In this document: positions 15,538 through 60,065 of the stretch, in pieces | How the letters are laid out: every line of letters starts with the position of its first letter | How positions within the stretch are numbered: position 1 is the stretch's first letter | NCBI RefSeq assembly: GCF_022458895.1 | Contig: NZ_JAINFL010000002.1 | Location: 186,001-250,000 of the forward strand | Direction of reading: 5' to 3' | Length of the DNA: 64,000 bases | Origin: Roseihalotalea indica | GTDB taxonomy: Bacteria; Bacteroidota; Bacteroidia; Cytophagales; Cyclobacteriaceae | Position numbers and translations under genes: made by a program | The notes under the pieces: generated by a model | Told to the model about the DNA's origin: nothing | The model's input: the letters and a program-made list of their open reading frames with translations, nothing else | The model's database searches: none

Positions 15538-15641
15538 TGTTCGCAATCGAACACCTTTGCCCGCCAGCGCACACTGAACTATTTTGGCCTTCTTGCAAAT
15601 TTTTGAAAATCAACTATTTATGAAGTGGCATGTATCTTGAA
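15538..15641 (+). promoter_or_regulatory. Tandem palindromic activator sites plus -24/-12-like promoter (P1)
   Basis: Site 1 TGTTCG-CAAT-CGAACA (15538-15553) is a perfect palindrome, extending to 7-bp arms. Site 2 TGCCCG-CCAG-CGCACA (15558-15573) is centred exactly 20 bp downstream. A sigma-54-like element TGGCATG-TATC-TTGAA lies at 15626-15641, with its GG 62 bp from the site 2 centre. The permease ATG is 47 bp after the -12. One of five promoters with this layout in the window. Activator identity is inference. Confidence 0.7.
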
Positions 15642-15687
15642 AACCGGAAAACAGTAAGAGACTCTTCACCACCGGACTGCTTGTATC

Positions 15688-18099
15688 ATGCTCAAAAATT
15701 ACTTCACCATTGCGCTGCGCAGCCTGACCAAATACAAAGGCTATTCCGCCATCAACCTGCTGGGCCTTACTGTAGGGATCACCACCTGTATCCTGATTTA
15801 CCTGTACATTCAGCACGAACTGAGTTACGACCAGTTTCATGAACAGGCCGACCGGATTTATCGCATCGATAATACCTACCATGCCGATGGCATACTCTCT
15901 TACCCAACCGTGGCCTCAGCCATGGCCGTGGGGGCGAAGGAAACGATCCCCGCCGTAGAAGAAGCCGTTCGCCTGTCGCGCTTTGGTGGAAACGGTATTA
16001 TTGTGCGGATTGAAGATGATTTCTACAAAGAGGAAGATGTATTCGTCGCTGATCCGTCTTTTTTCCGGATATTTTCATTCTCCCTGCTTGAGGGAGTGGC
16101 TACAACGGCTCTTACCGAGCCCTTCTCGGTGATGCTGACTGAAGAACTTGCTCAAAAATATTTTGGCAAAACGGATGTTGTCGGGCAATCTATTCAATTT
16201 GCCAATGATCAGGATCATACATATAGGGTAACCGGCGTAGTGGCTAATCCGCCCAGCAATAGCCATTTTACCTTCTCAATGCTGGTATCTATGGCAACGC
16301 TGGCATCGCTCAACCCTGACCTGGATTTTGACGCTACCTGGAACAATGACGGCTACTATACTTACCTGCTGGTGAAAGAAGGCACGAAGCCCACCGCACT
16401 AACCGCCCAGCTTAATGTGCTGAATCAGGAACACCATACCCCCCGAGATTTAGAACGCGAGAGCTCACTTACGGCCCTAACCGACATTCACCTGCACTCT
16501 AATTTACTGAATGAGTTGATGCCCAACGGCAGCATGACGCAGGTGTATGTCTTTGTGGCTATTGCGCTGTTTGTGCTGTTCATCGCCGTAATCAACTACA
16601 TGAACCTGGCCACCGCTCGCTCTGCCCGACGGGCGAAAGAAGTGGGCTTACGTAAAACACTCGGAGCGGAGCGTCGGCAGTTAATCAGTCAGTTTTTGAG
16701 TGAGTCAGTGCTACTGGTGCTGGTAGCCACATTGGTCTCCCTGTTATTGGCTCAGGCCCTGCTACCTACCTTTAATAACCTGTCTGGCAAAGCACTAACG
16801 ATGGATTTAACCAGTAATTTCGAGCTGTGGGCCGGACTATTGTTGATTATTCTGTTTACCGGCATCGTATCTGGTAGTTATCCGGCTTTGTTCTTATCCG
16901 GCTTTAAACCGGCCGAAGTGCTCAAAGGTAAACTGGCGGTAGGCATGAACAGCTCACCCTGGCTGCGCAAAGGGTTGGTCGTATTCCAATTCACAGTTTC
17001 TATTATCCTCATTATCGGTGCCTGGACGGTGTACAACCAGATCGATTATCTTCAGAACAAAGATCTTGGATTTCAGAAAGAGCATATTGTAGTAGTGCAG
17101 AATACGGGTAATGCTGTATCTGCTCAGCTCAATACCTTTAAGCGGGAACTGGCGGTTCATCAGGGGATTTTATCTACCACGGCTTCGCTCAGTGTGCCGG
17201 GTGGTTTGCGGCCGATTGTGCCGGTAAAAACCGATCAAATGGGAGAAGATGAAAGTACTAACATGGCCGCTATCAACATCGATTTCGAGTATCTGAAAAC
17301 GATGGGCATTGATGTGGAAGCCGGTCGCGATTTTGATCCTCGTTTTACTACTGATTCTACGGAAGCTATTATTATTAACCACCGGGCCATTCAGGAACTA
17401 GAGCTGATCGGAGAGCCGGTAGGGCAAACCGTACGCATTAATCTGGCCTTTCCGGAAGAAGATTACCAGGAAAAGCAGATCATCGGAGTGGTGGATGATA
17501 TTAATTTTGAGCCATTGTACCGATCTACGGCAGGAGCGCTTTTCGCTCCGCTTTTACCGATATACAACTACATTTTCATAAGAATCGCCCCGGAAAACCG
17601 GGAAGAAACGCTACGCCACATCGAGGATACGTGGACGGCTTTTGCCCCCGATCAGCCTTTTGAGTTCTCATTTCTGGATGATGATCTGAACCAACTCTAC
17701 CGCTCCGAGGAGAAACTAAGTTCTATCGTGACTTACTTTTCAATATTGGCTGTCATTATTGCCTGTATGGGCCTGTTCGGTCTGGCCTCGTTTGCTACCG
17801 ACCAGCGACGCAAAGAAATTGGCATTCGCAAAGTGCTGGGTTCTTCCAATGCCAGTATTATCCGTTTGTTCTTTAAAGAATACCTACAGATCATCGCGAT
17901 AGCAAACCTGATTGCCTGGCCCGCTGCTTATTTTCTGGCCCGAGCCTATATGGATAACTTCGTTTTCAGTACGCAAATTCAATGGTTCATCTTTGTGGTA
18001 GCCGGCGTATTGGTATTGGCCGTTGCTCTGATCACCGTAGGCACCAAAGCCATCCGCGCTGCCATGGCTAACCCAGTAAAATCTTTGAGAAGCGAATAA
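15688..18099 (+). CDS. FtsX/MacB-like permease, no prefix domain
   Basis: 803 residues. It begins directly with the core: MLKNYFTIALRSLTKYKGYS, first helix about 20-43, first periplasmic domain about 45-285. Three helices follow with NYMNLATARSARRAKEVGLR, SGSYPALFLSGF and the fifth helix GLVVFQFTVSIILIIGAW. The second periplasmic domain is followed by three helices with GLFGLASFATDQRRKEIGIR, ending ANPVKSLRSE. No ATPase is fused or adjacent, so it may work with a distant one or have a non-transport role. It is the first gene of the plus-strand array and is led by promoter P1. Confidence 0.92.
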   Translation: MLKNYFTIALRSLTKYKGYSAINLLGLTVGITTCILIYLYIQHELSYDQFHEQADRIYRIDNTYHADGILSYPTVASAMAVGAKETIPAVEEAVRLSRFGGNGIIVRIEDDFYKEEDVFVADPSFFRIFSFSLLEGVATTALTEPFSVMLTEELAQKYFGKTDVVGQSIQFANDQDHTYRVTGVVANPPSNSHFTFSMLVSMATLASLNPDLDFDATWNNDGYYTYLLVKEGTKPTALTAQLNVLNQEHHTPRDLERESSLTALTDIHLHSNLLNELMPNGSMTQVYVFVAIALFVLFIAVINYMNLATARSARRAKEVGLRKTLGAERRQLISQFLSESVLLVLVATLVSLLLAQALLPTFNNLSGKALTMDLTSNFELWAGLLLIILFTGIVSGSYPALFLSGFKPAEVLKGKLAVGMNSSPWLRKGLVVFQFTVSIILIIGAWTVYNQIDYLQNKDLGFQKEHIVVVQNTGNAVSAQLNTFKRELAVHQGILSTTASLSVPGGLRPIVPVKTDQMGEDESTNMAAINIDFEYLKTMGIDVEAGRDFDPRFTTDSTEAIIINHRAIQELELIGEPVGQTVRINLAFPEEDYQEKQIIGVVDDINFEPLYRSTAGALFAPLLPIYNYIFIRIAPENREETLRHIEDTWTAFAPDQPFEFSFLDDDLNQLYRSEEKLSSIVTYFSILAVIIACMGLFGLASFATDQRRKEIGIRKVLGSSNASIIRLFFKEYLQIIAIANLIAWPAAYFLARAYMDNFVFSTQIQWFIFVVAGVLVLAVALITVGTKAIRAAMANPVKSLRSE

Positions 18100-18103
18100 A
18101 AAA

Positions 18104-18178
18104 CAATGTACAATTAGCGATGAACAATGTGCAATTAATCTACTGTACAATGTTCATTGCACATTGCTAATTGAATTA
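18104..18178. repeat. Intergenic nested inverted repeat (family A)
   Basis: CAATTAGC (18111-18118) pairs with GCTAATTG (18166-18173), and inside it AATGTGCAAT (18126-18135) pairs with ATTGCACATT (18156-18165). The repeat ends directly at the next start codon. A related copy lies at 38139-38188. Its role (terminator, processing site or REP-like repeat) is unknown. Confidence 0.75.
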
Positions 18179-18181
18179 AAT

Positions 18182-20575: not shown

Positions 20576-20578
20576 TGA

Positions 20579-26013: not shown

Positions 26014-26107
26014 TGTCCATTCCCGTACATCAATTGCTCGTTCCCGAACACAATAATCTACGAAAAGCCTCTTAAAAGAAGCTCTGAGGCTTGGCAAAGG
26101 GTTTGTT
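26014..26107 (+). promoter_or_regulatory. Tandem palindromic activator sites plus -24/-12-like promoter (P2)
   Basis: Site 1 TGTCCA-TTCC-CGTACA (26014-26029) and site 2 TGCTCG-TTCC-CGAACA (26035-26050), centres 21 bp apart. The sigma-54-like element TGGCAAA-GGGT-TTGTT is at 26092-26107, its GG 51 bp from site 2. The PadR ATG follows at 26136. Confidence 0.65.
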
Positions 26108-26135: not shown

Positions 26136-26474
26136 ATGCGAAAGACCTACATCGGTGAACTGGAAGAGGTAGTGCTGCTAACCGTAGCTCTGCTCTACGA
26201 CGAAGCCTACGGGGTGGCAATCACCCGGGAGATCAAAGCTCAGACAGGGCGCAGTATCAGCATCAGTGCCATACATGCTACGCTGCACCGGCTATCAGAA
26301 AAGGGCTTTGTCAACTCCCGGCTCGGAGGGGCCACGGCTGAGCGGGGTGGCCGCCGCAAACGCTTCTTCACCGTAACCCCGGCCGGCAGCCGTATGCTGC
26401 ACGACATCCAGCAGACTCGCGATCAGTTGTGGCAACAGATACCGGCGCAGGCACTACAATGGAAGATGGAGTAA
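26136..26474 (+). CDS. PadR-family transcriptional regulator
   Basis: 112 residues: LEEVVLLTVALLYDEAYGVA, ISISAIHATLHRLSEKGFVN and wing RGGRRKRFFTVTPAGSRML. It heads an operon with a FecR-like fragment gene and three prefix-bearing permeases. It is closely related to the PadR at 35158 (shared VNSxxGxATAERGGRRKR), less so to the one at 4381. Its promoter is the sigma-54-like P2, so it may be both activated from P2 and a repressor of the same operon; this is inference. Confidence 0.94.
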   Translation: MRKTYIGELEEVVLLTVALLYDEAYGVAITREIKAQTGRSISISAIHATLHRLSEKGFVNSRLGGATAERGGRRKRFFTVTPAGSRMLHDIQQTRDQLWQQIPAQALQWKME

Positions 26475-26488
26475 GCCGGGATCACTAT

Positions 26489-26725
26489 ATGGAAGAAGAC
26501 TTTGCTTTAGACGATGATTTCTGTCGCTGGGTGTTGCATCCCGATGCTGCTTCGGAAACCTTCTGGGGCGACTGGCTCGTCCAACACCCGCATCAGCAGG
26601 AAGCCGTAGGCGAGGCTCGAGAACTGGTTTGTTGGCTGAGCCGGATGGATGGATCAGCTCCTATGTCGATATCCGAGAAAAAGAGTTCTTACCAACGCTT
26701 TTTGAAGAAACTTGATGAGAAATAA
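26489..26725 (+). CDS. Small FecR-N-like protein
   Basis: 78 residues from ATG 26489, 14 bp after the PadR stop; an in-frame ATG at 26459 overlapping padR is an alternative. The sequence DDDFCRWVLHPDAASETFWG and WLVQHPHQQEAVGEARELV resembles the cytosolic N-terminal domain of FecR anti-sigma factors. It stops before any membrane helix or FecR periplasmic domain. It could be a free sigma-binding or PadR-linked adaptor, or a remnant. It is followed 43 bp later by a permease. Family assignment is moderate. Confidence 0.65.
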   Translation: MEEDFALDDDFCRWVLHPDAASETFWGDWLVQHPHQQEAVGEARELVCWLSRMDGSAPMSISEKKSSYQRFLKKLDEK

Positions 26726-26768
26726 CGCCTCAATGGCACCTCAGAACTACCCTGTTAATTAACCCCAC

Positions 26769-29345
26769 ATGGATCAGAATCATCCAAACCCTATCCCCCC
26801 TCGTTGGGCTGACCAACTGTTAGAGGGCTTCTGTGCTCCGCACCTGCTGGAAGAGGTGCAGGGCGACTTGCATGAGATGTATGGGGAGTGGGTGACAGAG
26901 CACGGAGTGCGGAAGGCGAAGTGGTTGTATGTGGTGCACACGATTAAATTTTTCAGACCTTTTACTATGAGAAAAAAGCTTATACTCCCGACGAATACCC
27001 TGGACATGCTTAAGAACTACCTCATCATTGCCTGGCGTAATCTGCTCATCCACCGCCTCTATTCCTTCCTGAATATTACCGGGCTGGCGGTGGGGCTGGC
27101 CTGTGGGATTCTTCTCCTGCTATGGATAAAGCATGAGTTTAGCTATGATAAATTCCACCAGAATCTATCCAGTATCCACCTGATGATGAAAAATGAGATG
27201 CTGGGTGGGCAAATTCGCACGGGCGATGCCACTCCGGCACCGCTGGCCGCTACTCTGCGCGACCAGCTACCGGAAATCAGGTATGCCGCGTGTACGGGGG
27301 CCGGCGGACAAAAATTATTCAGCCTGGGCGAGAAAAGTGAATATGCTTCGGGCATCTACGCCGAACCAGACTTTTTCAACATCATGACGTACCCGGCAGT
27401 CAGCGGAGATCCGGCAGCTGCCTTGCGTGACCTGGGGTCATTAGTCATCACTGAAAGCACGGCCCGGAACTGGTTTGATGAGGCAGATCCGATTGGCAAG
27501 ATGGTGCGCCTGAACAATACCCATGATTTTCAGGTGGCAGCGGTGATCCGCGATGTTCCGTCTAACAGCACTCTCCACTTTGAGGTGGTGCTTCCTTTCC
27601 AACTGTACGAGCAGGAGAACAAGCCTAAATGGGATAACTACTCTTTTATGACGTGGGTCCTGCTTCAGCCGAATACCGACTTGGAAGCACTGGCTGGCAA
27701 AGTAAAAGATCTACTCACACCTAAACTGGATGAAGAAGTCCCGGATTTATTTGCTTACCCTTTGGCAGATATGCACCTGTTCAGTTCCTTCAAAAATGGC
27801 AAGCCGGATGGTGGAAAAATTGAGATGGTAACGATGTTGGGTTTTCTATGTTTTTTTATCGTATTGATTGCCTGTATCAACTTCATGAATCTGGCTACGG
27901 CCCGATCCGAGCGGCGCGCCCGGGAAGTAGGGGTAAGAAAGGTGATGGGGGCCCTGCGCTGGCTTATTATTGGGCAGTTTCTGAGCGAGGCATTGATCAT
28001 AACCTTCCTGGGACTAGCCCTGAGCATACTGCTGGTCAACCTGGGGTTACCTGCCTTCAATCAGCTGGCCGGACTAAGTTTGAGCCTGGATTTTTCCAAC
28101 TGGCAGATCTGGTCTATGCTGTTGGGGCTTGGCTTGATCACCGGACTGGTAGCGGGCAGTTATCCGGCTTTCTTTCTGAGCGCATTCCAACCCGTGCGGG
28201 TATTGAAAGGAGTGATTGCCACCGGAAAAAAGGTGGCGTGGCTGAGAAAAGGGTTAGTCACCTTTCAGTTCTTTATTTCTATCTTTTTCATCATCACCAC
28301 CATTGTTATCTACCAGCAACTGGACTACATCCAACACCGTCCGCTGGGGTATGAGCAGGAGAATCTGATTGAAATTCCGGCTCAAGGGGATATGGGCCAG
28401 CGGTACGAGGTAGTAAAGCATGATCTGCTGCAACTTCCCGGGGTAAGCAGCGTATCGGCAGGAACAGATAATCTATTACGAATGGGTGGCGGCATTACCG
28501 GCTTCCAATGGCCCGGCAAGACCCCTGAGCAGGATTTCAACATCACCGTCACCTGGGTGCATTACGACTGGGTGGAGACCGCCGGACTGAGTATGGCAGA
28601 AGGACGGGATTTTAGCCCTGAATTTGGTAGTGATTCATTGGCCTGCCTGCTTAACGAAGCCGCGGTAAAACAGATGCAACTGAAAGAGCCAATAGGCACA
28701 GTAGTCGGGGGTAACAGCGCCGTGATCGGGGTGGTAAAAGATTTTGTCTACAACAATCCAAATTCAGCACCTCACCCGATGGTCGCCTTCCTTGGCAAAC
28801 AGGGGTTGAGTCACTTCTTCGTGCGCTTTCAGAACGATCAGGATTGGCGGCAGCGCCTGGCGCAGATCGAGCAGGTCGTCAAAACGCATAATCCTGACTA
28901 CCCCTTTGAATTCCACTTCACCAAAGACGAATATCAGCGTAGCTTTGATGAGATGCGCGCCGGTGGCCATATGACGACCCTTTTCAGTGGGCTGGCAATA
29001 TTTATCGCCTGTTTGGGCCTAGTGGGTCTTTCGGCCTTTGTAGCTGAACAGCGGAAGAAGGAAATCGGTATCCGAAAGGTGCTGGGTGCTACCGTATCGC
29101 ACGTCAGCTTCTCGCTCTCCCGCGATTTCTTTCAGCCAGTAGCCTGGGCTTTCATTCTGGCTGCCCCTGTTGCCGGATGGGCCATGCAGCAGATGCTGGA
29201 TGGAGCCGACTATCGTATTGAACTTTCGTGGTGGATATTTGCCCTGGCGGGAGTGCTGGCTTTGATAATTGCTATGCTGACGGTGGGTTTCCAGAGCGTG
29301 AAAGCCGCCTTGGCTAATCCGGTAGACAGCTTGCGTAACGAATAA
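26769..29345 (+). CDS. FtsX/MacB-like permease with prefix domain
   Basis: 858 residues. Prefix about 10-68: PPRWADQLLEGFCAP with invariant Cys22, EEVQGDLHEMYGEW, KAKWLYVVHTIKFFRPF. The core starts near Met89 (MLKNYLIIAWRNLLIHRLYS), with NFMNLATARSERRAREVGVR, AGSYPAFFLSAF, fifth helix FQFFISIFFIITTIVIY, second periplasmic domain, GLVGLSAFVAEQRKKEIGIR and terminal ANPVDSLRNE. Third gene after PadR and the FecR-like gene. Its prefix aligns with those of the next two permeases, and the linked ends suggest the block grew by duplication. Confidence 0.92.
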   Translation: MDQNHPNPIPPRWADQLLEGFCAPHLLEEVQGDLHEMYGEWVTEHGVRKAKWLYVVHTIKFFRPFTMRKKLILPTNTLDMLKNYLIIAWRNLLIHRLYSFLNITGLAVGLACGILLLLWIKHEFSYDKFHQNLSSIHLMMKNEMLGGQIRTGDATPAPLAATLRDQLPEIRYAACTGAGGQKLFSLGEKSEYASGIYAEPDFFNIMTYPAVSGDPAAALRDLGSLVITESTARNWFDEADPIGKMVRLNNTHDFQVAAVIRDVPSNSTLHFEVVLPFQLYEQENKPKWDNYSFMTWVLLQPNTDLEALAGKVKDLLTPKLDEEVPDLFAYPLADMHLFSSFKNGKPDGGKIEMVTMLGFLCFFIVLIACINFMNLATARSERRAREVGVRKVMGALRWLIIGQFLSEALIITFLGLALSILLVNLGLPAFNQLAGLSLSLDFSNWQIWSMLLGLGLITGLVAGSYPAFFLSAFQPVRVLKGVIATGKKVAWLRKGLVTFQFFISIFFIITTIVIYQQLDYIQHRPLGYEQENLIEIPAQGDMGQRYEVVKHDLLQLPGVSSVSAGTDNLLRMGGGITGFQWPGKTPEQDFNITVTWVHYDWVETAGLSMAEGRDFSPEFGSDSLACLLNEAAVKQMQLKEPIGTVVGGNSAVIGVVKDFVYNNPNSAPHPMVAFLGKQGLSHFFVRFQNDQDWRQRLAQIEQVVKTHNPDYPFEFHFTKDEYQRSFDEMRAGGHMTTLFSGLAIFIACLGLVGLSAFVAEQRKKEIGIRKVLGATVSHVSFSLSRDFFQPVAWAFILAAPVAGWAMQQMLDGADYRIELSWWIFALAGVLALIIAMLTVGFQSVKAALANPVDSLRNE

Positions 29346-29349
29346 CTCT

Positions 29350-29420
29350 AGTGAGTAATGATTGATGAATAATGAAGAATCAATCTAGCTCATCAATCAT
29401 TACTCATTCGTCATGAACCA
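29350..29420. repeat. Intergenic inverted repeat (family B)
   Basis: Perfect 16-bp arms, GAGTAATGATTGATGA (29353-29368) and TCATCAATCATTACTC (29390-29405), with a 21-base loop. No T tract follows on the plus strand, so it is not a standard terminator. Copies follow the next two permeases. Confidence 0.85.
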
Positions 29421-29423
29421 TTA

Positions 29424-32129
29424 ATGATAATGCCAAAGAATCATCATCCCACGGAACGCCGGCCGCCCCGCTGGGCCAACCGCTTGCTGGAAAGCTTCTG
29501 TGCGTCGCGCTTGCTGGAAGAGGTGCAGGGCGACTTGTATGAATTGTACGGAGAATGGGCAGAGGAATATGGAGAGCGAAAAGCAAGGTGGTTATATGCG
29601 TGGCATACAATTAAATTTTTCAGACTCTTTGCGCTAAAGAGAAGAACAGATATTCACCTTCTAAACCAACTGGCTATGATCAAGAATTATCTAAAAGTAG
29701 GCATCCGCAACATTTTCAAGTATAAAGTCTTCTCGTTCATTAATGTGTTCGGGCTGGCCGTAGCCATGTCGGTCTGTATGCTCATCATTCTGATGCTGGC
29801 CGACCAGAAAAGCTACGATCAGTTTCATGCTAAGAAGGACCGAACGTATCGCATACTTTCTAAAATAAAGGAGTCAGCGGTACCTAACGCCACCAGTCCT
29901 TTTCCCTTAGCCGATATTATGCGGGAAGATTACCCCATTGTAGAGGCTGCTACGCACCTGATTCCAAATGTTGGTGGTGATGTTACGTATGGGCAGAAAA
30001 CTGTAGAGATGCGAGGTTTTTTTGCCGATGCGTCTTTCTTTGAGGTATTTGACTTTGCACTGGAGGAAGGTGATGCGCAGGAAGCGCTGGCCAGCCCTAA
30101 CACCATGGTCATCAGTCAGGAACTGGCCCGGCAGTTATTCGGTGAGGAGGAAGCCGTAGGGAAACGGGTAGAGTATGTGGATAGAGAACTGCGATTACTG
30201 AAACTTGATTTCGGTAGTGATCCGGGACATGCGCCGGTAGAATGGGGTAGTTTTACGATTACCGGAGTAATCAATCCTGATAAATACAAATCACATATAC
30301 GCTTTGAGATGCTGGTTTCAGCCGCGTCGCTGCCCATCTTATACCGACAGGAAAAAAAGGCGGATTTCTCCGACAACTGGCGACAGTACTCGCATAGCTA
30401 CACCTACCTGGTTCTGAAGCCGGATGTTTCTGAGCAACAGCTAACCACTGCCCTCGATAATCTGGTAGCACAAAAGTACAGAGAGTTTGAAGAGCTCAAA
30501 GGCATACAAATGATTCCCCAGAACCTGACGGCTATTAATCCGGGGAAGTTTGCCGGCAACCCGATCAGCCTTCACCTACCGATAGAAGCGTATTACTTCT
30601 TAGGATTTCTGGCCCTGGTCATTATGTTCTCGGCCTGCCTGAACTACACCAACCTGTCTATTGCCCGAGCCCTTACCCGCGCCCGGGAGATTGGAGTACG
30701 CAAGGTGACCGGAGCCAAACGGCGCGATCTGATCTTTCAGTTTCTGAGCGAATCGGTACTAACCGTGTTATTCGCTCTCATGCTAGCCTACCTGCTGCTC
30801 ATGGGGGTGAAGCCCGCTTTTATGGAGCTTTGGGCTAATAAGTACCTGAATTTCGATCTTCAGGGAAATGGACTGGTTTATCTGGGCTTCCTGGGCCTGG
30901 CACTAATTATCGGACTGATGGCCGGCACCTACCCGGCGATGTATTTATCCCGCTACTCGCCTACCAAAGTGCTTAAGAATTTTAGCAGTGAGAAAGTCAG
31001 TAAGCAGGGGATGCGGAAGTTTCTTAGCACGTTTCAGTTTGTGGTTTCCCTGTTTTTCATAATCACTTCGCTGCTGATCTATCATCAGTTTCGCCATTAC
31101 CTGGATTTTGAGTATGGATTTGCCTCAGAAAACCTGATGAATATTCCTACCCAGGGAAACGATTACCAGAAGTTGAAGACTGAGTTCAGCACCCTCCCGG
31201 GGGTAGTGGCTGTTTCGGCCAGCGCCTACATTCCGGCCACGGCCATGTCGAACGGGACCATCGGGGTAAGAAAAGCTGATAGCGAAGATGAGTGGGTATC
31301 ATTTGAGCATATGAGTGTAGATTCATCTTTCGTATCCAACTTCGGACTTAGCCTGGTAGCTGGCAGAAATCTCCCTATGGATAGAGGCGGCAGCCCGGCA
31401 ATTTTGGTGAACGAAGCAGCCGCTCGGGCATTGGGATATCAGCATCCGTCGGAAGCCATTGGGGCATTGCTGAAAACGGGAATTTACACTGAACCCGCCG
31501 AGGTGGTGGGGGTAATGAAAGACTTTAAGTTTCAGACTCCAGTGATGGAGGATGGCATTGGCCCGCTATTATTCCGATACGAACCGGAGCGCTTTAGTTA
31601 TCTGAATGTGAAGATTGCTTCCGCTGATATAGCCAGCACTCTGGCGGCACTGGAAACCCGGTGGAAGAACATAGATCCAGTGCATTCCTTCAACTACTAT
31701 TTCTTTGACGATCAACTCGTGCAGGTAAACCAGTGGCTGGGCGACCTGGTCTCTGTCATCAGTTTTATTGCTTTCCTCGCCATCGTGATTGCCTGTTTGG
31801 GCATGCTGGGCATTGCTACGTATACCGCCGAGAGGAAAACGAAGGAGGTAGGTATCCGCAAGGTGCTGGGAGCCGCGGAGCTAAGCATTGCCTTACTGTT
31901 GTCCCGTGGTTTTCTAGCCACTCTGGCTATTGCCGTAGCCATTGGTGCCCCGATCAGCTATTTTATCAATCAGCTTTGGCTGCAAAATTTCCCGAATCGA
32001 GTACACTTTGGCTGGAGCACTATCCTGCTGGGTTCCACACTGCTACTGGTTTTGGGGTTGCTCACCATCGGATCACAAACCATTCGGGCGGCCCGGCAAA
32101 ACCCAGTAGATACACTACGAACAGAATAA
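29424..32129 (+). CDS. FtsX/MacB-like permease with prefix domain
   Basis: 901 residues from ATG 29424 (29430 also possible). Prefix: PPRWANRLLESFCASRLLEE with Cys26, VQGDLYELYGEWAEEYGERK. Core: MIKNYLKVGIRNIFKYKVFS. It has the FtsX variant NYTNLSIARALTRAREIGVR, AGTYPAMYLSRY, fifth helix FQFVVSLFFIITSLLIY and GMLGIATYTAERKTKEVGIR, ending QNPVDTLRTE. NLSIARA, MLGxATYTAER and QNPVDTLR are shared only with the 32214 permease, its close paralogue. The first about 60 core residues are nearly identical between the two, while the periplasmic domains differ strongly. Confidence 0.92.
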   Translation: MIMPKNHHPTERRPPRWANRLLESFCASRLLEEVQGDLYELYGEWAEEYGERKARWLYAWHTIKFFRLFALKRRTDIHLLNQLAMIKNYLKVGIRNIFKYKVFSFINVFGLAVAMSVCMLIILMLADQKSYDQFHAKKDRTYRILSKIKESAVPNATSPFPLADIMREDYPIVEAATHLIPNVGGDVTYGQKTVEMRGFFADASFFEVFDFALEEGDAQEALASPNTMVISQELARQLFGEEEAVGKRVEYVDRELRLLKLDFGSDPGHAPVEWGSFTITGVINPDKYKSHIRFEMLVSAASLPILYRQEKKADFSDNWRQYSHSYTYLVLKPDVSEQQLTTALDNLVAQKYREFEELKGIQMIPQNLTAINPGKFAGNPISLHLPIEAYYFLGFLALVIMFSACLNYTNLSIARALTRAREIGVRKVTGAKRRDLIFQFLSESVLTVLFALMLAYLLLMGVKPAFMELWANKYLNFDLQGNGLVYLGFLGLALIIGLMAGTYPAMYLSRYSPTKVLKNFSSEKVSKQGMRKFLSTFQFVVSLFFIITSLLIYHQFRHYLDFEYGFASENLMNIPTQGNDYQKLKTEFSTLPGVVAVSASAYIPATAMSNGTIGVRKADSEDEWVSFEHMSVDSSFVSNFGLSLVAGRNLPMDRGGSPAILVNEAAARALGYQHPSEAIGALLKTGIYTEPAEVVGVMKDFKFQTPVMEDGIGPLLFRYEPERFSYLNVKIASADIASTLAALETRWKNIDPVHSFNYYFFDDQLVQVNQWLGDLVSVISFIAFLAIVIACLGMLGIATYTAERKTKEVGIRKVLGAAELSIALLLSRGFLATLAIAVAIGAPISYFINQLWLQNFPNRVHFGWSTILLGSTLLLVLGLLTIGSQTIRAARQNPVDTLRTE

Positions 32130-32134
32130 CTTTA

Positions 32135-32208
32135 ATGAATGATGGTTGATGACTAATGAGGAGTAAATCTAGCTCATCAATCATCACCCATCCGTCATGA
32201 ATCATTAA
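32135..32208. repeat. Intergenic inverted repeat (family B)
   Basis: Imperfect arms TTAATGAATGATGGTTGATGA and TCATCAATCATCACCC...CATGAATCATTAA around a TCTAGC centre. It resembles the repeat at 29350, including the shared AATCTAGCTCATCAATCAT core, and ends at the next start region. Confidence 0.75.
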
Positions 32209-32213
32209 TAAAG

Positions 32214-34892: not shown

Positions 34893-34894
34893 CT

Positions 34895-34975: not shown

Positions 34976-35092
34976 TGTTCCAAATCGGATACTTGTTGTT
35001 CGTTCCCGTACAAAAACTATTAACTCTTTTCTGCTAAAATCCACCTTCATTTGCGCTGTAAGCAGTTTTTGAGTTTTGGCAAAGCATTTGTT
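34976..35092 (+). promoter_or_regulatory. Tandem palindromic activator sites plus -24/-12-like promoter (P3)
   Basis: Site 1 TGTTCC-AAAT-CGGATA (34976-34991) is weak; site 2 TGTTCG-TTCC-CGTACA (34997-35012) is strong; centres 21 bp apart. The element TGGCAAA-GCAT-TTGTT is at 35077-35092, GG 74 bp from site 2. The N4 TTCC and the TGGCAAA...TTGTT element closely match P2, so the two promoters are probably duplicates. Confidence 0.65.
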
Positions 35093-35157: not shown

Positions 35158-35499
35158 ATGAGAAGAAGCGATTTAGGCGAATTTGAGGAGGTCGTTTTAC
35201 TCTCGGTAGCCGTTTTGACACCCCAGGCCTACAGCGTAGCCATTGCCGAAGCTCTGGAAGAAGAAACCGGCCGCACCATCACCACCGGAGCCGTGCATGC
35301 TGCCCTGCAACGGTTAGAGAAAAAAGGCTTTGTCAACTCCCAGATGGGCGAGGCTACCGCCGAACGAGGCGGCCGCCGCAAACGCCTCTTCACGGTGACC
35401 ATCGCGGGCAGCCGGATGCTGCATGAGGTTCAGGCGGTCCGTAACCGACTGTGGGACCGAATTGCACCCCAAGGCTTGCCCCAAATTAACCTGACTTAG
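35158..35499 (+). CDS. PadR-family transcriptional regulator
   Basis: 113 residues: RRSDLGEFEEVVLLSVAVLT, TTGAVHAALQRLEKKGFVNS and wing RGGRRKRLFTVTIAGSRML. The stop is two bases before the next permease ATG, so expression is tightly coupled. Closest relative in the window is the PadR at 26136. The leader is about 60 bases. Expected to bind the operator of its own operon, but no palindrome like the one upstream of the 4381 gene was found here. Confidence 0.94.
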   Translation: MRRSDLGEFEEVVLLSVAVLTPQAYSVAIAEALEEETGRTITTGAVHAALQRLEKKGFVNSQMGEATAERGGRRKRLFTVTIAGSRMLHEVQAVRNRLWDRIAPQGLPQINLT

Positions 35500-35501
35500 C
35501 C

Positions 35502-38132: not shown

Positions 38133-38138
38133 CTTAGA

Positions 38139-38188
38139 CAATGTGCAATGAACAGTGAGCAGTTAACTGCACATTACTAATTGAGTTA
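38139..38188. repeat. Intergenic inverted repeat (family A)
   Basis: AATGTGCA (38140-38147) pairs with TGCACATT (38168-38175). The right end CTAATTGAGTTAAAT runs into the next ATG, as in the copy before the 18182 permease (CTAATTGAATTAAAT). Confidence 0.75.
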
Positions 38189-38191
38189 AAT

Positions 38192-40789: not shown

Positions 40790-41066
40790 GGTTCTAATCA
40801 GTGAACCAAGATAATTTTTCTGCACCTTCTGCCGATAAATAACTAAGAAATAAAGATGAAAATGGTATATTGAGCAAAGCATGTGTGGGTGTTATCTTCA
40901 TGCATGTTGGCTCATCTCAAACTAGAAAATAGGGAAAAAGCAGATTGGTTAAGCGCTTGCTCTAATTGCCAATCGGATGCATAACTATTTGCAGTGTGTA
41001 TCAAAATGCTGCCCCCTGTAACTTTTGCTATTTTCTGAAGTGTCCCTCACTAAACCTAACTTGGCC

Positions 41067-43466
41067 ATGATCAAAAACTATCTCACTACTGCCCTGAGAA
41101 CCCTATTGAAATACAAGGGGTACTCTGCCCTTAATATTGTGGGACTTGCCATTGGCATTGCGTCTTTTTTGCTTATTTCCCTCTACGTGTACCATGAATT
41201 AAGCTACGACCGGTACCACGAAAATGCGGATAACATTTACCGGATTGTGGAAAACCTGCGAACGGAGAATGAGATACTTTTTCAGTCTACCAGCTCGCCG
41301 CCCATGGGGCCTACCTTTGCTCGAGAGTTTCCGGAAGTAAAAGGGTTTGTTCGGTTCAATGAATTCTGGCAGACCCTGGTGCAGAAAGATGACACGAAGT
41401 TTTACGAAGAGAAATGTTTCCTGGCCGACTCCAGCGTTTTCAATATTTTTTCTTTCCCTATGCTTGAGGGTGATCCTCAAACGGCCCTGACCGAGCCGCA
41501 TACGGTGGTGCTTACCGAAACTACGGCTCAAAAATATTTTGACGACCAAGATCCCATGGGTCAGTCGCTGTTAATAAGGGGGGAGAATTACACCGTAACC
41601 GGAGTTATGAAGGATGTGCCGGAAAACTCTCACTTCACGGTTAACATGTTGCTTTCGTTTATCACGTTTAGCAGTGAAAACCGGCGAGCCGAGGAAGAAG
41701 CCTGGTTCTGGAATGGCTTTCACACCTATTTACTACTGGAGCCGGGAGAAAATCAGGCGAAGAATCTCCAGGCAAAGATTCCGGATTTTATCAACAAATA
41801 CATGCCTAACGATGATAAATCGGGTATGTACTACGAGGACTTGCCTCTACAACCGCTCACCAGCATTTATCTGGAAGTGCCCCGCTCGTGGGAAAATGGA
41901 GAGCGAGGCAGCAAAAGCAATATTCTTATTCTGTCAATCATCGCCCTCTTCATTCTGGCTATTGCCTGTTTTAATTACGTGAATCTGGCTACAGCTCGCT
42001 CATCACGAAGAATGAAGGAAGTTGGGTTGCGCAAAGTACTCGGAGCTGAAAGAGCGGCGCTAATCAGGCAATTTTTGGGCGAGTCTATCCTGGTGAGCTT
42101 TGTCTCTATGCTGTTGGGGTTACTTATTGCAGTAGTGGCTTTGCCTTTATTTAATAATATGCTGGAAACGTCGCTGGGCTATGGGCTGCTAAGTAATGTC
42201 TACGTCTGGGCCGGGTTACTTGGGCTTACCTTGCTGCTGGGAGTGCTGGCGGGTGGCTATCCGGCTTTTCTGGTTTCTGGCTTCCATCCATTATCAATTT
42301 TTAAGAATGCTCCCCGTTCAATGTATGGCAATAACTGGCTGAGGAAAATGCTGGTTTCTGGTCAGTTCGTTATTTCCATTACCCTCATTGCAGGCACGCT
42401 GCTGGTGTTTGATCAGTTAGACCTGATACAACATATGAATCTGGGTTTCGATAAGGAAGAGACACTCACGCTCTGGTACAATGGTAACCAGGAGATACGT
42501 GAGCACCTGGATGCCATTAAAAATGAGATGAAAGAAGTTCCGGGGGTGCAGGCCGTAGCGGCTTCGTCTTCTGTACCCGGTGGCGGAACCAACAATCTGT
42601 TTTCGCTCATTGAGATAGCAGATGGCTCTATGTCACCCACCAATATTAACACCTACCGGGTTGACTATGATTTTATCCCCAATTACGGCATTAAGGTGTT
42701 GGCGGGACGAAACTTTTCCCGCGATTTTCCGGCGGACGATACCACGGCTTTTATCATCAATGAAGCCGCAGTGAAAAACCTGGGTTTTACTTCTCCGGAA
42801 GCGGCCGTGGGCCGAAAAGTAGATCAGCAGGGTAAGAAAGGAACCATTGTAGGGGTAGTGCAGGATTTCAACTATAAATCGCTGCACTACGCAGTAGAGC
42901 CGCTGATCATCCACATGAATAGTAACTGGTACAATGTGCTTTCTATCAAGATACAATCCGATGATATTCCGGAAGTGGTGAGTCAGTTGGATGACAAATG
43001 GATGACCCTGGCGTCGGGGTTGCCCTTCAATTATTCTTTCTTAGATCAGGACTACGACAAGCTTTACAATGCGGAAACTCAATTAAGCAAGGTAGTTACC
43101 ATCTTTAGTTCGCTGGCTATTTTTGTGGCTTGTCTGGGTTTGTTAGGTCTCACTTCCTTTTCGGTGCAAAGAAGGTTTAAAGAAATTGGTATCCGAAAGG
43201 TGCTGGGCGCTTCGGTTCGAAGTGTGGTCGTGTTAATCGCCAACGAATTTATCAAGCTGATCATCATCGCGCTGTTCATTGCCATTCCCATCACCTATTA
43301 CGTGATCAACCTGTGGCTGGAGAATTTCACCAATCGCATCTCCATCAACCCGCTGACTTTTGCGCTGGCGGGCCTGGGCACATTGGTTATTGCTTGGCTT
43401 ACTGTTAGTTATTTGTCTATCAAAGCCGCTCAGTCTAATCCGGTGGATTCTCTGAGAAATGAATAA
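41067..43466 (+). CDS. FtsX/MacB-like permease, no prefix domain
   Basis: 799 residues from ATG 41067 (MIKNYLTTALRTLLKYKGYS); the open frame reaches a TTG at 41025 without family similarity. Features: NYVNLATARSSRRMKEVGLR, AGGYPAFLVSGF, fifth helix GQFVISITLIAGTLLVF, GLLGLTSFSVQRRFKEIGIR and SNPVDSLRNE. This is the last gene of the array. The tandem-palindrome promoter is absent from its upstream region, so it either reads through from P3 or has another promoter. Confidence 0.92.
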   Translation: MIKNYLTTALRTLLKYKGYSALNIVGLAIGIASFLLISLYVYHELSYDRYHENADNIYRIVENLRTENEILFQSTSSPPMGPTFAREFPEVKGFVRFNEFWQTLVQKDDTKFYEEKCFLADSSVFNIFSFPMLEGDPQTALTEPHTVVLTETTAQKYFDDQDPMGQSLLIRGENYTVTGVMKDVPENSHFTVNMLLSFITFSSENRRAEEEAWFWNGFHTYLLLEPGENQAKNLQAKIPDFINKYMPNDDKSGMYYEDLPLQPLTSIYLEVPRSWENGERGSKSNILILSIIALFILAIACFNYVNLATARSSRRMKEVGLRKVLGAERAALIRQFLGESILVSFVSMLLGLLIAVVALPLFNNMLETSLGYGLLSNVYVWAGLLGLTLLLGVLAGGYPAFLVSGFHPLSIFKNAPRSMYGNNWLRKMLVSGQFVISITLIAGTLLVFDQLDLIQHMNLGFDKEETLTLWYNGNQEIREHLDAIKNEMKEVPGVQAVAASSSVPGGGTNNLFSLIEIADGSMSPTNINTYRVDYDFIPNYGIKVLAGRNFSRDFPADDTTAFIINEAAVKNLGFTSPEAAVGRKVDQQGKKGTIVGVVQDFNYKSLHYAVEPLIIHMNSNWYNVLSIKIQSDDIPEVVSQLDDKWMTLASGLPFNYSFLDQDYDKLYNAETQLSKVVTIFSSLAIFVACLGLLGLTSFSVQRRFKEIGIRKVLGASVRSVVVLIANEFIKLIIIALFIAIPITYYVINLWLENFTNRISINPLTFALAGLGTLVIAWLTVSYLSIKAAQSNPVDSLRNE

Positions 43467-55690: not shown

Positions 55691-58051
55691 TCACTCATCC
55701 TTCAGGCACTGAGCGGGGTTTATCTTCGCTGCTTTTATGGTCTGAAAACCGACGCTCAGCCAGGCAATGAGTAGGGCGATGACCCCGGCTCCGGCAAAAT
55801 ACCATACTTGCAGATCGATACTAAAGGCAAAACGCTGCAACCAGGCCTGAGCCGCAAAATAGCTGATGGGCAACGCAATGGTAATAGCAATCAGCACCAT
55901 TTTGGTGAAATCACCGGACAAAAGATAGACAATGCCGGTATTGCTGGCCCCTAGAATCTTGCGGATACCGATTTCTTTCAGTCGTCGTTCGGCAGTGAAG
56001 GCGGCCAACCCGAATAGCCCGAGGCAGGAGATGAGAATTGCCAGTGCGGCGAAGTACTTGGAGAGGGTAGAAACCCGTTGTTCGGCGGCATAAAGAGCCT
56101 GATAATCATCATCCAGAAACTGATAATCGAAGGCATAACCCGGGTTATAGGACTGATAAAAGTCCCGGATGCGATCCAGCGTCTCGGGCAGACGATTCGC
56201 TTCTACCTTGGCAATCATGGTAGTGGCATCGCCTTCAGCCAGTTTCATAAAAGCCGGGGCTACCTGCTCGTGCAGCGAGTTGTAATGAAAGTCTTTTACT
56301 ACTCCCACAATTTGCCGGTCCTGCCCCCACAAATTAATGGTTTGCCCAATCGGGTCCTCCAGGCCCATTACCTTCATGGCAGCTTCGTTGAAGATAATGC
56401 CAGTGGAATCTGACGCGAAATCTCTAGAGAACGACCTTCCGGCGTCCATTTCCATACCCAAGGTTTCAATGAGGCCGTAGTTCACGGTAATATTCTGAAA
56501 ACGAACAATGGCATCCGGATCTTTTCCCGGCCACGATACTCCCGTAGTAAAAGCAGTAGCTCCCACCAGATTCTGACGCATGCTGGCTGCGCTCACCACG
56601 CCGGGTATTTCCTGTAGCTCAGACAGGAATGTTTCCATGCTCTCTACTACTTTTCCTTCAGCCGGAAAATGAATAATATTATCCCGGTCGTAGCCCAGGT
56701 TTTTAGACTGTACAAATGAGATCTGCTGATATACGATCAGGACAGCCACGATTAAAACCACCGACAGGGTAAACTGAAAAACTACCAGCCCTTTACGTGC
56801 CCATAGCTCGCCTACCGAACTATTAAACTTACCTTTCAGCACGGCAATCGGGTTAAAACCTGATAGGTACAAAGCCGGATAACTACCCGCCAGCAGTCCG
56901 GTCAGGAAGGTAATACCCAGCACGGAAGCCACCAGGGGTATATCTAAGCCTAAAGTCAATTGCTTGCCAGTGATTTGATTGAACTGAGGAAGCAACAATG
57001 TAACGAGAATCATCGCGGTAAGCAGCGAGAGGGCAGCCATCATGGTAGATTCGCCCAGATATTGAAAAATCAGTGTGGAACGACGTGCGCCAATCGCTTT
57101 CTTAATCCCTACTTCTTTAATCCGCCGCGAGGCTTTAGCCGTAGACAGATTCATGAAGTTGATGCAGGCAATCACCAGAATGAATATGGCAATGATAGAA
57201 AACAGGCGCACGTAAGCAATACGTCCGCCGACCAGCACACCGTTGGTATAATCTCCGTATAGGTATCGGTCAGAATAAAGTTTGAGAAAAAGCGTGATGT
57301 TAGAGTTTTCATCCTTGGTTTGCATGAAGCCCGCGAGCTTCTTGTCTAACTGATCAGTCTTTGTTCCCTCTTTTAACAATACATCAGTGATAGCGTAGTA
57401 ATTACCCCAATTAGCATTTTCAATAAGGTCATCCTGGAAATAGTCGAACGACAACAGAAAATCGAAGGGCTCGGAAGTTTGGTCGGGTACATTCTCAAAA
57501 ATGCCCGTTACAATGACTTCTTTGGTAAACACATACGCCTGCCACTCCAGGGTTTTCCCTACGACATTCTCAGTGGTGTTGAAGAGGTTCATCGCCATTT
57601 CTTCGGAGAGCACAATAGAACTTTTATCAGCCAGTACCTGCTGCGGATCGCCCTGCAACAGCTTGAAAGAATAGAGCGAGAAAAAATCTTTGCTCACGAA
57701 TTGCCCCTGGGCATCAATATGCAGTTCGTTGGCAGAAAGGGAAAACTCCTCAATGCCCGATGAGCTTACAACGTACTCGATCTCCGGCATTTCCTGCTCT
57801 AAAGCCTCTCCAAGAAGTCCGGTTGTGTAAGGCATGGTTGTAATCTGGTCGGCTTCAGCATGGTTCGCCATCACCCGGTATAACCGGTCGTTATTCTGGT
57901 GGAAAGCATCTATCGCTAGTTCATCGTTTACCCACAGATAAATGAGCAATGCACAGGCCAGCCCGGACGACAGCCCGATGAGGTTAATAAAGAACGTGCT
58001 TTTAAACCGCTGAAAATTACGGTAGATGAGTAGGAGACCATGTCGGAACAT
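55691..58051 (-). CDS. FtsX/MacB-like permease, no prefix domain
   Basis: 786 residues: MFRHGLLLIYRNFQRFKSTF, first helix, periplasmic domain, NFMNLSTAKASRRIKEVGIK, AGSYPALYLSGF, fifth helix FQFTLSVVLIVAVLIVY, second periplasmic domain, GLFGLAAFTAERRLKEIGIR and the unusual end INPAQCLKDE. Far from the array and on the opposite strand, yet led by the same promoter architecture (P4). Monocistronic as far as visible. Confidence 0.92.
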   Translation of the reverse strand: MFRHGLLLIYRNFQRFKSTFFINLIGLSSGLACALLIYLWVNDELAIDAFHQNNDRLYRVMANHAEADQITTMPYTTGLLGEALEQEMPEIEYVVSSSGIEEFSLSANELHIDAQGQFVSKDFFSLYSFKLLQGDPQQVLADKSSIVLSEEMAMNLFNTTENVVGKTLEWQAYVFTKEVIVTGIFENVPDQTSEPFDFLLSFDYFQDDLIENANWGNYYAITDVLLKEGTKTDQLDKKLAGFMQTKDENSNITLFLKLYSDRYLYGDYTNGVLVGGRIAYVRLFSIIAIFILVIACINFMNLSTAKASRRIKEVGIKKAIGARRSTLIFQYLGESTMMAALSLLTAMILVTLLLPQFNQITGKQLTLGLDIPLVASVLGITFLTGLLAGSYPALYLSGFNPIAVLKGKFNSSVGELWARKGLVVFQFTLSVVLIVAVLIVYQQISFVQSKNLGYDRDNIIHFPAEGKVVESMETFLSELQEIPGVVSAASMRQNLVGATAFTTGVSWPGKDPDAIVRFQNITVNYGLIETLGMEMDAGRSFSRDFASDSTGIIFNEAAMKVMGLEDPIGQTINLWGQDRQIVGVVKDFHYNSLHEQVAPAFMKLAEGDATTMIAKVEANRLPETLDRIRDFYQSYNPGYAFDYQFLDDDYQALYAAEQRVSTLSKYFAALAILISCLGLFGLAAFTAERRLKEIGIRKILGASNTGIVYLLSGDFTKMVLIAITIALPISYFAAQAWLQRFAFSIDLQVWYFAGAGVIALLIAWLSVGFQTIKAAKINPAQCLKDE

Positions 58052-58092: not shown

Positions 58093-58196
58093 TTCAATCC
58101 TTATGCCATTGATTAAAGTTGCTCTGAGAGCTTCTGGGGGCCTGCTTATTATTGATTGACTGTTCGCGTACGATCATGATTGTGCGAATACGGACA
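58093..58196 (-). promoter_or_regulatory. Tandem palindromic activator sites plus -24/-12-like promoter (P4)
   Basis: In plus-strand reading, the distal site TGTGCG-AATA-CGGACA is at 58181-58196 and the proximal site TGTTCG-CGTA-CGATCA at 58161-58176, centres 20 bp apart. On the minus strand TGGCATA-AGGA-TTGAA occupies 58108-58093, its GG 62 bp from the proximal centre. The permease ATG (58051) follows after 41 bp. Confidence 0.7.
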
Positions 58197-58395
58197 ACCA
58201 TAAAGATGCTTTTTGATTGATTCGAAAGGCTTATTTGCAGGATGATTTTAAAAACACATTGCCAGAAAGGATTGTTGTTTTTTTCAGTTGGCATTGGTTA
58301 TAATAAGGTGATTTTTATTTCCCTTTCACCCTGATTTCCCTCTTTGCTTTTTTTACCAGCAAATTTTTTCCAGAACGAGGTTTCGAGTTTAGGAT

Positions 58396-58920: not shown

Positions 58921-59699
58921 AAGTAGATGATTACATAGCGTCAGGCGTACTAGAGCAATATGTATTGGGAGACTTAACTGCTACTGAAGCCAACGAGGTA
59001 GCAAGAATGGCATCGCTATACCCCGAAGTGCGTCAGGAAATAACACTAATAGAAGATACGCAGCAGGCCATCACCGAAAACCTGGCTATAAAGCCGCCCC
59101 TTCGCGTGAGAGAATCGATCCTGGCTACCATCTCAGGCTCAGAAGAAAAAGATGCTGATGAGAAGCCCTCTCTTACTAAAAAGAATAAAAAAATACATTA
59201 TCTGCGATATGGCGTAGCAGCTTCTTTTACCCTAAAACTGGTAGCTATGGCCGTGGCAGCTCATTTCTGGATACAATGGCAACGGGCCGACGACCGGTTT
59301 GCACGGCTACAGGAGCGTTATGAAAACCTCGAACAGGAATCGCAGCAGATTACCAAGGCTCTGTTTGCCGTAAGTGACCCGGACTTTCAGACGATAGTAC
59401 TTAAAAGTCAGGGGACAGACACTAACAACCGGGCACTGGTATATTGGAATGAAAAAACGTTGGAGATATATATAAACCCTAACAACCTTCCCAAGAATAA
59501 CAACGATCAACAGTACCAGCTTTGGGGCATGGTAAATGGCAACCCACAAAGCTTAGGGACCTTTGATGTATCCGGTACATCTTCTCTACCTCAGATAATC
59601 ACGATGCAGGGCGTAGACAACCTTTCATCCTTTGCTATCACCTTAGAACCCGATGGTGGAAGCACCTCACCGAGCCCTCAATCTCCAATATACCAGTGA
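58917..59699 (+). CDS. RskA-type anti-sigma factor
   Basis: 260 residues starting with TTG at 58917, which overlaps the sigma stop (TTGA); no in-frame ATG is near. The cytosolic ASD-like part has VLEQYVLGDLTATEANEVAR. One membrane helix (about 100-122) is followed by a coiled segment (RFARLQERYENLEQESQQ) and the RskA_C domain (YQLWGMVNGNPQSLGTFDV, FAITLEPDGGSTSPS). It should hold the preceding sigma factor at the membrane until released by proteolysis. Confidence 0.92.
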   Translation: MKVDDYIASGVLEQYVLGDLTATEANEVARMASLYPEVRQEITLIEDTQQAITENLAIKPPLRVRESILATISGSEEKDADEKPSLTKKNKKIHYLRYGVAASFTLKLVAMAVAAHFWIQWQRADDRFARLQERYENLEQESQQITKALFAVSDPDFQTIVLKSQGTDTNNRALVYWNEKTLEIYINPNNLPKNNNDQQYQLWGMVNGNPQSLGTFDVSGTSSLPQIITMQGVDNLSSFAITLEPDGGSTSPSPQSPIYQ

Positions 59700-59767
59700 T
59701 ACAGTCGCGTGTATTCCGATTATCAAGTAAGAAGCAATTTGCCGTCGAAGTTTTAATAAGTGTTATC

Positions 59768-59818
59768 GGAGGCAGTTAGCGGGAGGCCGGGCTCGCACGC
59801 CTCCCGCTGACTGCCCCC
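59768..59818. repeat. GC-rich intergenic palindrome
   Basis: Arms of 20 bp, GGAGGCAGTTAGCGGGAGGC (59768-59787) and its near-complement at 59799-59818, with two mismatches and an 11-base loop. No T tract. It follows the anti-sigma gene. Confidence 0.88.
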
Positions 59819-59961
59819 TGTTTCCTAGCAATACTATAACTACCATTTAGGCTGAAGCGAAGTAAATTCTCAAACCGTCATTTCGGGATTTCCGTGGTGT
59901 TACGAAGCTCACTTTTGGTGTGTTCTTCTGCAATACTTTTCATTTTGATGAGGCACTAAAG

Positions 59962-60065
59962 TGTACGATCACGTACACTTCTGCCCATTAGCGTACAACC
60001 CTTTTGATAAAAATCCCTCTAAAACGACCACTGGCGCATTTTTTGTCTCTGGCACGCCGGTTGAA
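59962..60065 (+). promoter_or_regulatory. Tandem palindromic activator sites plus -24/-12-like promoter (P5)
   Basis: Site 1 TGTACG-ATCA-CGTACA (59962-59977) is perfect, with arms extending to 9 bp. Site 2 TGCCCA-TTAG-CGTACA (59982-59997) is centred 20 bp downstream. TGGCACG-CCGG-TTGAA follows at 60050-60065, the best -24 match of the five, GG 62 bp from site 2. The next ATG is 60110. Confidence 0.7.

What the first reader, a model, noticed from the sequence alone, without database searches (positions are those of the whole stretch)
15538..60065. Five promoters share tandem palindromes plus a sigma-54-like core: an unrecognised permease regulon
At 15538, 26014, 34976, 58161 and 59962 there are pairs of sites of form TGnnCr-N4-CGnACA (ten sites; eight agree well, two are weak), each pair 20-21 bp apart. 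Every pair is followed by TGGCA-N6-TTG in the correct direction and, within about 70 bp, by a start codon. Four of the five downstream units are FtsX-like permease genes or PadR-permease operons. Paired palindromes upstream of -24/-12 elements are the standard arrangement for hexameric sigma-54 activators, so I infer one NtrC-family activator controls most of the permease array. No such gene is in the window.
Basis: partly seen in the sequence, partly recalled or inferred. Interest (0 to 1): 0.88.

Follow-up and report, generated by a model that had tools for sequence, protein, structure and literature searches.

The report
Sigma-54 regulon for membrane permease arrays
Five promoters in this bacterial DNA carry a paired regulatory site and a matching sigma-54 promoter core, and the same arrangement recurs in other bacteria near one conserved two-component activator gene and membrane-permease genes, so the pattern is real and looks like one undescribed control circuit.

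Summary
The paired palindromes are real and the sigma-54 reading holds, with one correction. A TGTNCG-N4-CGNACA scan ranks exactly the five reported pairs first (18-19 of 20 positions; next unrelated pair 14). The window holds eight TGGCA-N6-TTG cores on both strands; five sit 52, 41, 64, 52 and 52 bp from the five pairs. Pair 4 was misassigned: its core is on the minus strand and faces permease 55691-58051, not the ECF sigma gene. Four of five targets are then permease units. The strict tandem occurs in at least 118 genome stretches from several phyla, with cores at helically phased distances. In 41 of 118 an NtrC-type receiver-GAFTGA-Fis gene lies within 1.5 kb; in loci inspected a kinase adjoins it and HlyD-ATPase-FtsX genes diverge. 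Its orthologs are the best candidate activator, though not every tandem genome shows a clear one. No genome is held for the window, so its own copy was not seen. A sigma-54 link to FtsX permeases was predicted in 2025 (PMC12316311); my searches found no report of this site with its activator. Nothing here is experimental.

The parts
15538..15573 (+). pair 1: tandem TGTNCG-N4-CGNACA sites, pitch 20
   Evidence: 19 of 20 fixed positions
15626..15639 (+). sigma-54-like core TGGCATGTATCTTG, 52 bp after pair 1
15688..18099 (+). FtsX/MacB-core permease, target of pair 1; permease 18164-20575 begins 65 bp later and 21077-23524 further on
   Evidence: Pfam MacB_PCD and FtsX; shared transcription inferred from spacing
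26014..26050 (+). pair 2, pitch 21
   Evidence: 18 of 20
26092..26105 (+). core TGGCAAAGGGTTTG, 41 bp after pair 2
26136..34892 (+). PadR gene 26136-26474 and three permeases 26769-29345, 29424-32129, 32214-34892
   Evidence: Pfam; no own tandem or strong core in the 300 bp before the later permeases; operon inferred
34976..35012 (+). pair 3, pitch 21
   Evidence: 18 of 20
35077..35090 (+). core TGGCAAAGCATTTG, 64 bp after pair 3
   Evidence: best core score in the window
35158..43466 (+). PadR gene 35158-35499 and three permeases 35502-38132, 38192-40789, 41025-43466
   Evidence: Pfam; operon inferred
58161..58196 (-). pair 4, pitch 20
   Evidence: 19 of 20
55691..58051 (-). FtsX/MacB-core permease, target of pair 4
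   Evidence: Pfam
59962..59997 (+). pair 5, pitch 20
   Evidence: 18 of 20
60050..60063 (+). core TGGCACGCCGGTTG, 52 bp after pair 5
60110..61448 (+). target of pair 5: pentapeptide-repeat protein 60110-60877 and a 188-aa ORF without Pfam match 60882-61448; not a permease
   Evidence: Pfam; operon inferred

Best explanation
The five pairs are upstream activating sites of sigma-54 promoters. An NtrC-family response regulator (receiver, GAFTGA AAA+ domain, Fis-type HTH), phosphorylated by a neighbouring histidine kinase, binds as dimers to the two palindromes, which lie two helical turns apart on one face of the DNA. From a phased distance of about 41-75 bp it contacts sigma-54 RNA polymerase at TGGCA-N6-TTG and opens the promoter. 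In relatives its gene often lies beside a tandem that faces an HlyD adaptor, an ATPase and FtsX permeases, so the regulon is an on-demand export system for envelope cargo. In the window it should switch on four permease units and a pentapeptide-repeat operon. Shown here: sites, cores, phasing, gene neighbourhood, co-occurrence. Inferred: binding, phosphorylation, sigma-54 dependence, export function, and that the window's genome holds the same activator.
For: Five of the window's eight TGGCA-N6-TTG cores lie at 52, 41, 64, 52 and 52 bp from the five tandems. Around those tandems 46 of 56 TGGC[AC]-N6-TTG cores found within 400 bp on either side lie at 40-79 bp. With a matrix built from these cores, the best core of 86 of 119 distinct tandems scores 5 or more in phase (offsets bunch at 51-55, 62-66, 73-75, three at 43-44). 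On 65 tandems from eight genomes it scores 8 or more in 54 of 65, 50 in phase, against 61 of 1300 random positions, 9 in phase; some training tandems recur there. Activator ORFs over 250 bits lie within 1.5 kb of the tandem in 41 of 118 loci, 10 of which built the model. Five genomes picked by an unrelated protein all carry a pitch-20 tandem (16-20 of 20) upstream of the ortholog. Across 198 Bacteroidota genomes, 22 of 52 with an ortholog at E below 1e-150 hold a pitch-21 tandem with at most 2 mismatches, against 2 of 146 without; the threshold was noted before one search was answered. Sigma-54 is in 12 of 12 genomes checked.
Against: 30 of 52 Bacteroidota genomes with the ortholog show no pitch-21 tandem at 2 mismatches. 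Of 18 best orthologs in tandem-bearing genomes 7 have none within about 1.5 kb, including the Spirosoma one. G015 (Porphyromonas levii) has strict tandems (L006, L067) but its best match scores only 460 bits and its N-terminus looks like the second paralog group; G225 has a tandem and no match at E 1e-125. In L259/L271 the tandem by the ortholog scores 16 with no phased core. The -12 part in the window is TTGA or TTGT, not the commoner TTGC. Pair 5 serves no permease, and PadR-permease operon 4710-1757 has no tandem. 33 of 119 tandems in the first set have no phased core at 5 or more. At 3 mismatches G016 had 1 real and 2 control hits. Kinship was not corrected for in the association test, and G001, chosen for its tandem, is in it.
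Confidence: 0.85

Rival explanations
1. Sigma-54 promoters, but driven by a different NtrC-family paralog, with the neighbouring ortholog merely one more target or a bystander.
For: Genomes carry many paralogs, some orthologs lack a nearby tandem, and G015 has tandems but no clear ortholog.
Against: None of the 12 lower-ranked loci L137-L148 carries a tandem of 17 or more within its roughly 1.5-kb flanks, while an activator ORF of this type is within 1.5 kb in 41 of 118 tandem loci and the ortholog co-occurs with the tandem.
Confidence: 0.09
2. The palindromes are operators of another regulator, for example PadR or another repressor, and the nearby sigma-54-like cores are coincidental or serve a separate system.
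For: Two of five window units, and a number in relatives, begin with a PadR gene.
Against: Helical phasing between tandem and core; units without PadR, and activator-HlyD intergenic regions, carry the same tandem; one PadR operon in the window lacks it.
Confidence: 0.04
3. Chance or compositional artefact.
For: Two of ten sites are weak (8 of 10).
Against: 0 pairs at 16 or more in 100 simulations against 5 in the window; across 12 genomes the pattern gives 1-13 hits a genome and the same pattern read backwards 0-2, with G016 the one genome where the control (2) exceeds the real count (1).
Confidence: 0.01

Closest known systems
PrsK/PrsR of the PEP-CTERM/exosortase system (PMC1569441, passages read)
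   Same: NtrC-like response regulator plus histidine kinase, an upstream motif and a sigma-54 motif 32-92 nucleotides further on, found by comparative genomics; PrsR (TIGR02915) is the best NCBIfam match of the two activators scanned
   Different: The two activators score 383 and 375 bits against a cut-off of 502.6; that motif was first seen as TTTACA; targets are PEP-CTERM proteins, not permeases
Predicted sigma-54 promoters before COG0577 FtsX permeases (PMC12316311, passages read)
   Same: Predicted sigma-54 control of this permease family in Bacteroidia, Gammaproteobacteria and Opitutia
   Different: Its text holds no 'tandem', 'UAS' or 'upstream activ'; in the passages read no activator is assigned to these promoters
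MacAB-type transporters and the MacB superfamily
   Same: HlyD adaptor, ATPase, MacB_PCD and FtsX domains; an OEP outer-membrane protein nearby in L263
   Different: Window permeases carry no ATPase domain; two of them match the MacB NCBIfam model far below its cut-off
ADOP duplicated orphan permeases with PadR regulators (TIGR03434, TIGR03433)
   Same: Orphan permeases, some with PadR genes and a permease prefix domain (NF038404 over its cut-off for 26769-29345)
   Different: Two window permeases score 336 and 262 against a cut-off of 622.3; one PadR 36 against 101.8
Sigma-54 promoters in Flavobacterium psychrophilum (PMC9723704, passages read)
   Same: -24/-12 promoters with mapped starts in a Bacteroidota member, one confirmed by mutagenesis; protein-quality, envelope-stress and gliding genes
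   Different: Term 'permease' absent from its text; activators not assigned to promoters

Membership tests
sigma-54-dependent promoter with upstream activating site | -24/-12 core TGGCA-N6-TTG(C) with fixed spacing | tested here: met
   Five of five with exact TGGCA-N6-TTG, pair 4 on the minus strand; the base after TTG is A or T in the window
sigma-54-dependent promoter with upstream activating site | activator sites on a consistent face of the helix relative to the core | tested here: met
   Offsets bunch about one turn apart
sigma-54-dependent promoter with upstream activating site | transcription lost without RpoN; start about 12 bp after the -12 element | not testable with these tools
   Needs RNA work; Sigma54_DBD present in 12 of 12 other genomes
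NtrC-family activator regulon | activator with receiver, GAFTGA sigma-54 domain and Fis-type HTH | tested here: met
   Pfam Response_reg, Sigma54_activat and HTH_8 in three candidate activators (L105, L043, L264); the window's own copy not seen
NtrC-family activator regulon | activator binds the sites | not testable with these tools
   Only adjacency and co-occurrence
PrsR (TIGR02915) | score over the curated cut-off 502.6 | tested here: not met
   383.1 and 375.1 bits for L264 and L105
ADOP permease (TIGR03434) | score over the curated cut-off 622.3 | tested here: not met
   336 and 261.6 bits for two of the window's eleven permeases; the other nine not tested
MacB transporter | own ATPase domain fused to the permease | tested here: not met
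   Eleven window permeases show MacB_PCD and FtsX only

The most novel reading that the evidence does not exclude
One conserved two-component system, found in several phyla, commands a modular exporter: an HlyD adaptor and ATPase encoded beside the activator serve many interchangeable orphan FtsX permeases, all induced together through the same tandem site, so the permease array is one inducible export machine with a varied set of membrane parts.
Probability: 0.35. Interest if true: 0.82.

Novelty: new member of a known kind. Interest (0 to 1): 0.64.

Why it matters
Orphan FtsX permeases are numerous in some Bacteroidota (28 and 33 copies annotated 'of unknown function' in two Dyadobacter genomes, PMC11573002, one passage read). 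A defined site and a candidate activator turn their role into a testable circuit: delete one activator gene and read which permeases fall silent. The motif also gives a regulon scan for any genome, and the same tandem in Pseudomonadota and other phyla suggests an old or widely shared envelope response.

Tried and rejected
Assigning pair 4 to the ECF sigma gene: rejected, no TGGCA-N6-TTG there; the minus-strand core fits. Treating the five closest sampled genomes as lacking the system because the pitch-21 pattern gave 0 of 5: rejected, they carry pitch-20 tandems. Looking for a sixth promoter before the PadR-permease operon 4710-1757: a TGGCA-like core lies at 4969 on the minus strand, without TTG at the right place and without tandem. 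Placing the window taxonomically: its ATP-grasp protein is at best 62% identical to anything in 200 genomes of the Larkinella family, so no close kinship is claimed. Nine of ten allowed paper searches found no report of this site with its activator; most subscription journals are not held. No structure was predicted and no protein-database search was run. Names for HlyD, ATPase, kinase, activator, permease and PadR in script tallies come from models built on L105, alignment A1 and window sequences, confirmed by Pfam only in the cases.
Full report
Observation. The window is 64 kb of about 46% GC. I scored every 16-mer against TGTNCG-N4-CGNACA. Eight sites reach 9 of 10 and all eight lie in the five reported pairs; the five pairs score 18-19 of 20; the rows at 15-17 share a site with them and the best unrelated pair scores 14. 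A dinucleotide simulation gave no pair at 16 or more (pitch 20-21, each site at least 8) in 100 runs, and about one single site at 9 or more per run. Pitch is 20 bp for pairs 1, 4 and 5 and 21 bp for pairs 2 and 3.

Cores. TGGCA-N6-TTG occurs eight times in the window counting both strands. Five of the eight lie at 52, 41, 64, 52 and 52 bp from pairs 1 to 5. Four of five targets are then permease units; the fifth is a pentapeptide-repeat gene. If neighbouring genes are co-transcribed, the four permease promoters could serve up to ten of eleven permease genes; the eleventh, 1757-4369 with its PadR gene, has no tandem.

Recurrence. Uniform random sequence would give about 0.2 by my own arithmetic. 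Before any matrix was built, 46 of the 56 TGGC[AC]-N6-TTG cores found within 400 bp of these tandems lay at 40-79 bp, 28 of them at 50-59. A matrix built from the cores at 40-100 bp then gave, for 86 of 119 distinct tandems, a best core scoring 5 or more in phase, bunched at 51-55, 62-66 and 73-75 bp with three at 43-44; this second count uses its own training loci. That bunching one helical turn apart is what an activator that must face the polymerase would leave. On 65 tandems from eight genomes (G001-G005, G007, G008, G014; regions fetched around 65 of the 75 sites that one search counted there) 54 cores scored 8 or more, 50 in phase, against 61 of 1300 random positions with 9 in phase; these genomes were chosen because they hold a strict tandem, and some training tandems recur among the 65.

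Targets. I called a unit a permease system if one of its first three ORFs matched my FtsX, HlyD or ATPase models and the first began within 700 bp. Of the 86 in-phase tandems in the first set 69 qualify, 8 lead into other genes, 9 have no gene in reach within the locus; of the 55 in the second set the numbers are 39, 11 and 5. Other genes beside tandems include DUF3244-like small proteins (one of three over the Pfam cut-off) and AraC-type regulators.

Activator. Twelve of 118 loci showed a GAFTGA-like ORF at first; ten of these proteins gave alignment A1, with receiver, sigma-54 and Fis HTH domains in the two scanned by Pfam and, in most of the ten, a further ORF of about 450 aa behind (a histidine kinase in L105) and an HlyD-ATPase-FtsX set diverging. 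With a model of A1, 47 of 118 loci hold an activator ORF over 250 bits and 41 of 118 hold it within 1.5 kb of the tandem, the ten included; loci were not thinned for kinship. In 18 tandem-bearing genomes most have one clear best ortholog; G014 has two close ones (642 and 572 bits) and G015 only a 460-bit match that resembles the second paralog group. Of the 18 best loci 10 have the tandem directly upstream, one has it about 1.4 kb away, 7 have none within the fetched flanks; 0 of 12 lower-ranked loci have one at 17 or more. Five of those ten are the very tandems that brought the genome in, so five are independent. The stronger check is: five genomes chosen by an unrelated protein all carry a pitch-20 tandem, 16-20 of 20, upstream of the ortholog; pattern searches agree (0 of 5 genomes at pitch 21; 5 of 5 at pitch 20 with at most 3 mismatches). 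In four of these five the genes run activator-kinase, tandem, HlyD, ATPase, and then three or more permeases; the fifth, L271, differs and its tandem has no phased core. In L266 the best-scoring core is at 78 bp, with a nearly equal one about 53 bp away.

Co-occurrence. In 198 Bacteroidota genomes 24 hold a pitch-21 tandem with at most 2 mismatches (the reversed pattern: 1 of 198); 22 of those are among the 52 with an ortholog at E below 1e-150, 2 among the 146 without; one of these two, G388, has a weaker hit 6 kb from its site, the other, G225, none at E 1e-125. In 20 of the 23 tandem genomes with a hit the nearest tandem lies within 20 kb of it. Fisher p is 6e-13 but ignores kinship, G001 was in the sample although chosen for its tandem, and one search scored only eight candidates per genome. 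Thirty of 52 ortholog genomes have no such tandem; of 29 new ortholog loci fetched, 17 carry a tandem at 17 or more of 20 and 15 of these a phased core, so the motif drifts.

Known work. PMC12316311 predicted sigma-54 promoters for COG0577 permeases and calls this the first evidence (passages). PMC1569441 is the model for this kind of discovery: PrsK/PrsR with an upstream motif and a sigma-54 motif (passages). The two activators scanned match PrsR best but below its cut-off. I found no paper with this tandem and this activator in the searches named under Tried and rejected.

Bold reading. In four relatives one HlyD and one ATPase gene sit beside the activator and a run of permeases; all eleven permeases in the window lack an ATPase domain. 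That fits a shared adaptor and ATPase, but ATPase genes of the same type also occur beside other tandems (L198, L263, L272), so the sharing is a guess.

Limits. No genome is held for the window, so the window's own activator is inferred. All evidence is sequence comparison. Names in tallies rest on simple models.

Noticed in passing
58396-59699: ECF sigma factor and RskA-like anti-sigma gene pair; they lie on the far side of pair 4, where no TGGCA-N6-TTG core was found.
   Followed up: partly
20642-20938: A 23S rRNA-intervening-sequence family protein ORF sits between permease genes 18164-20575 and 21077-23524.
   Followed up: no
1757-4710, minus strand: A PadR-permease operon without the tandem, with a TGGCA-like core at 4969 that lacks the TTG.
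   Followed up: partly
L182, L188, L225: Small DUF3244-like proteins of 124-136 aa behind or close beside the tandem in three genomes (one of three over the Pfam cut-off).
   Followed up: partly
L264, L265-L270: Runs of permease genes with one HlyD and one ATPase gene beside the activator; possible shared ATPase.
   Followed up: partly
L258-L262 against L123-L128: Pitch between the palindromes is 20 bp in one lineage and 21 bp in another; the window has both.
   Followed up: partly
L169, L215, L219: A variant tandem in which the first palindrome ends in ACG instead of ACA and the second begins with CGT instead of TGT.
   Followed up: no
L006, L067 (G015): Porphyromonas levii has strict tandems with strong cores at 44 bp, yet its best activator match resembles another paralog group.
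   Followed up: partly
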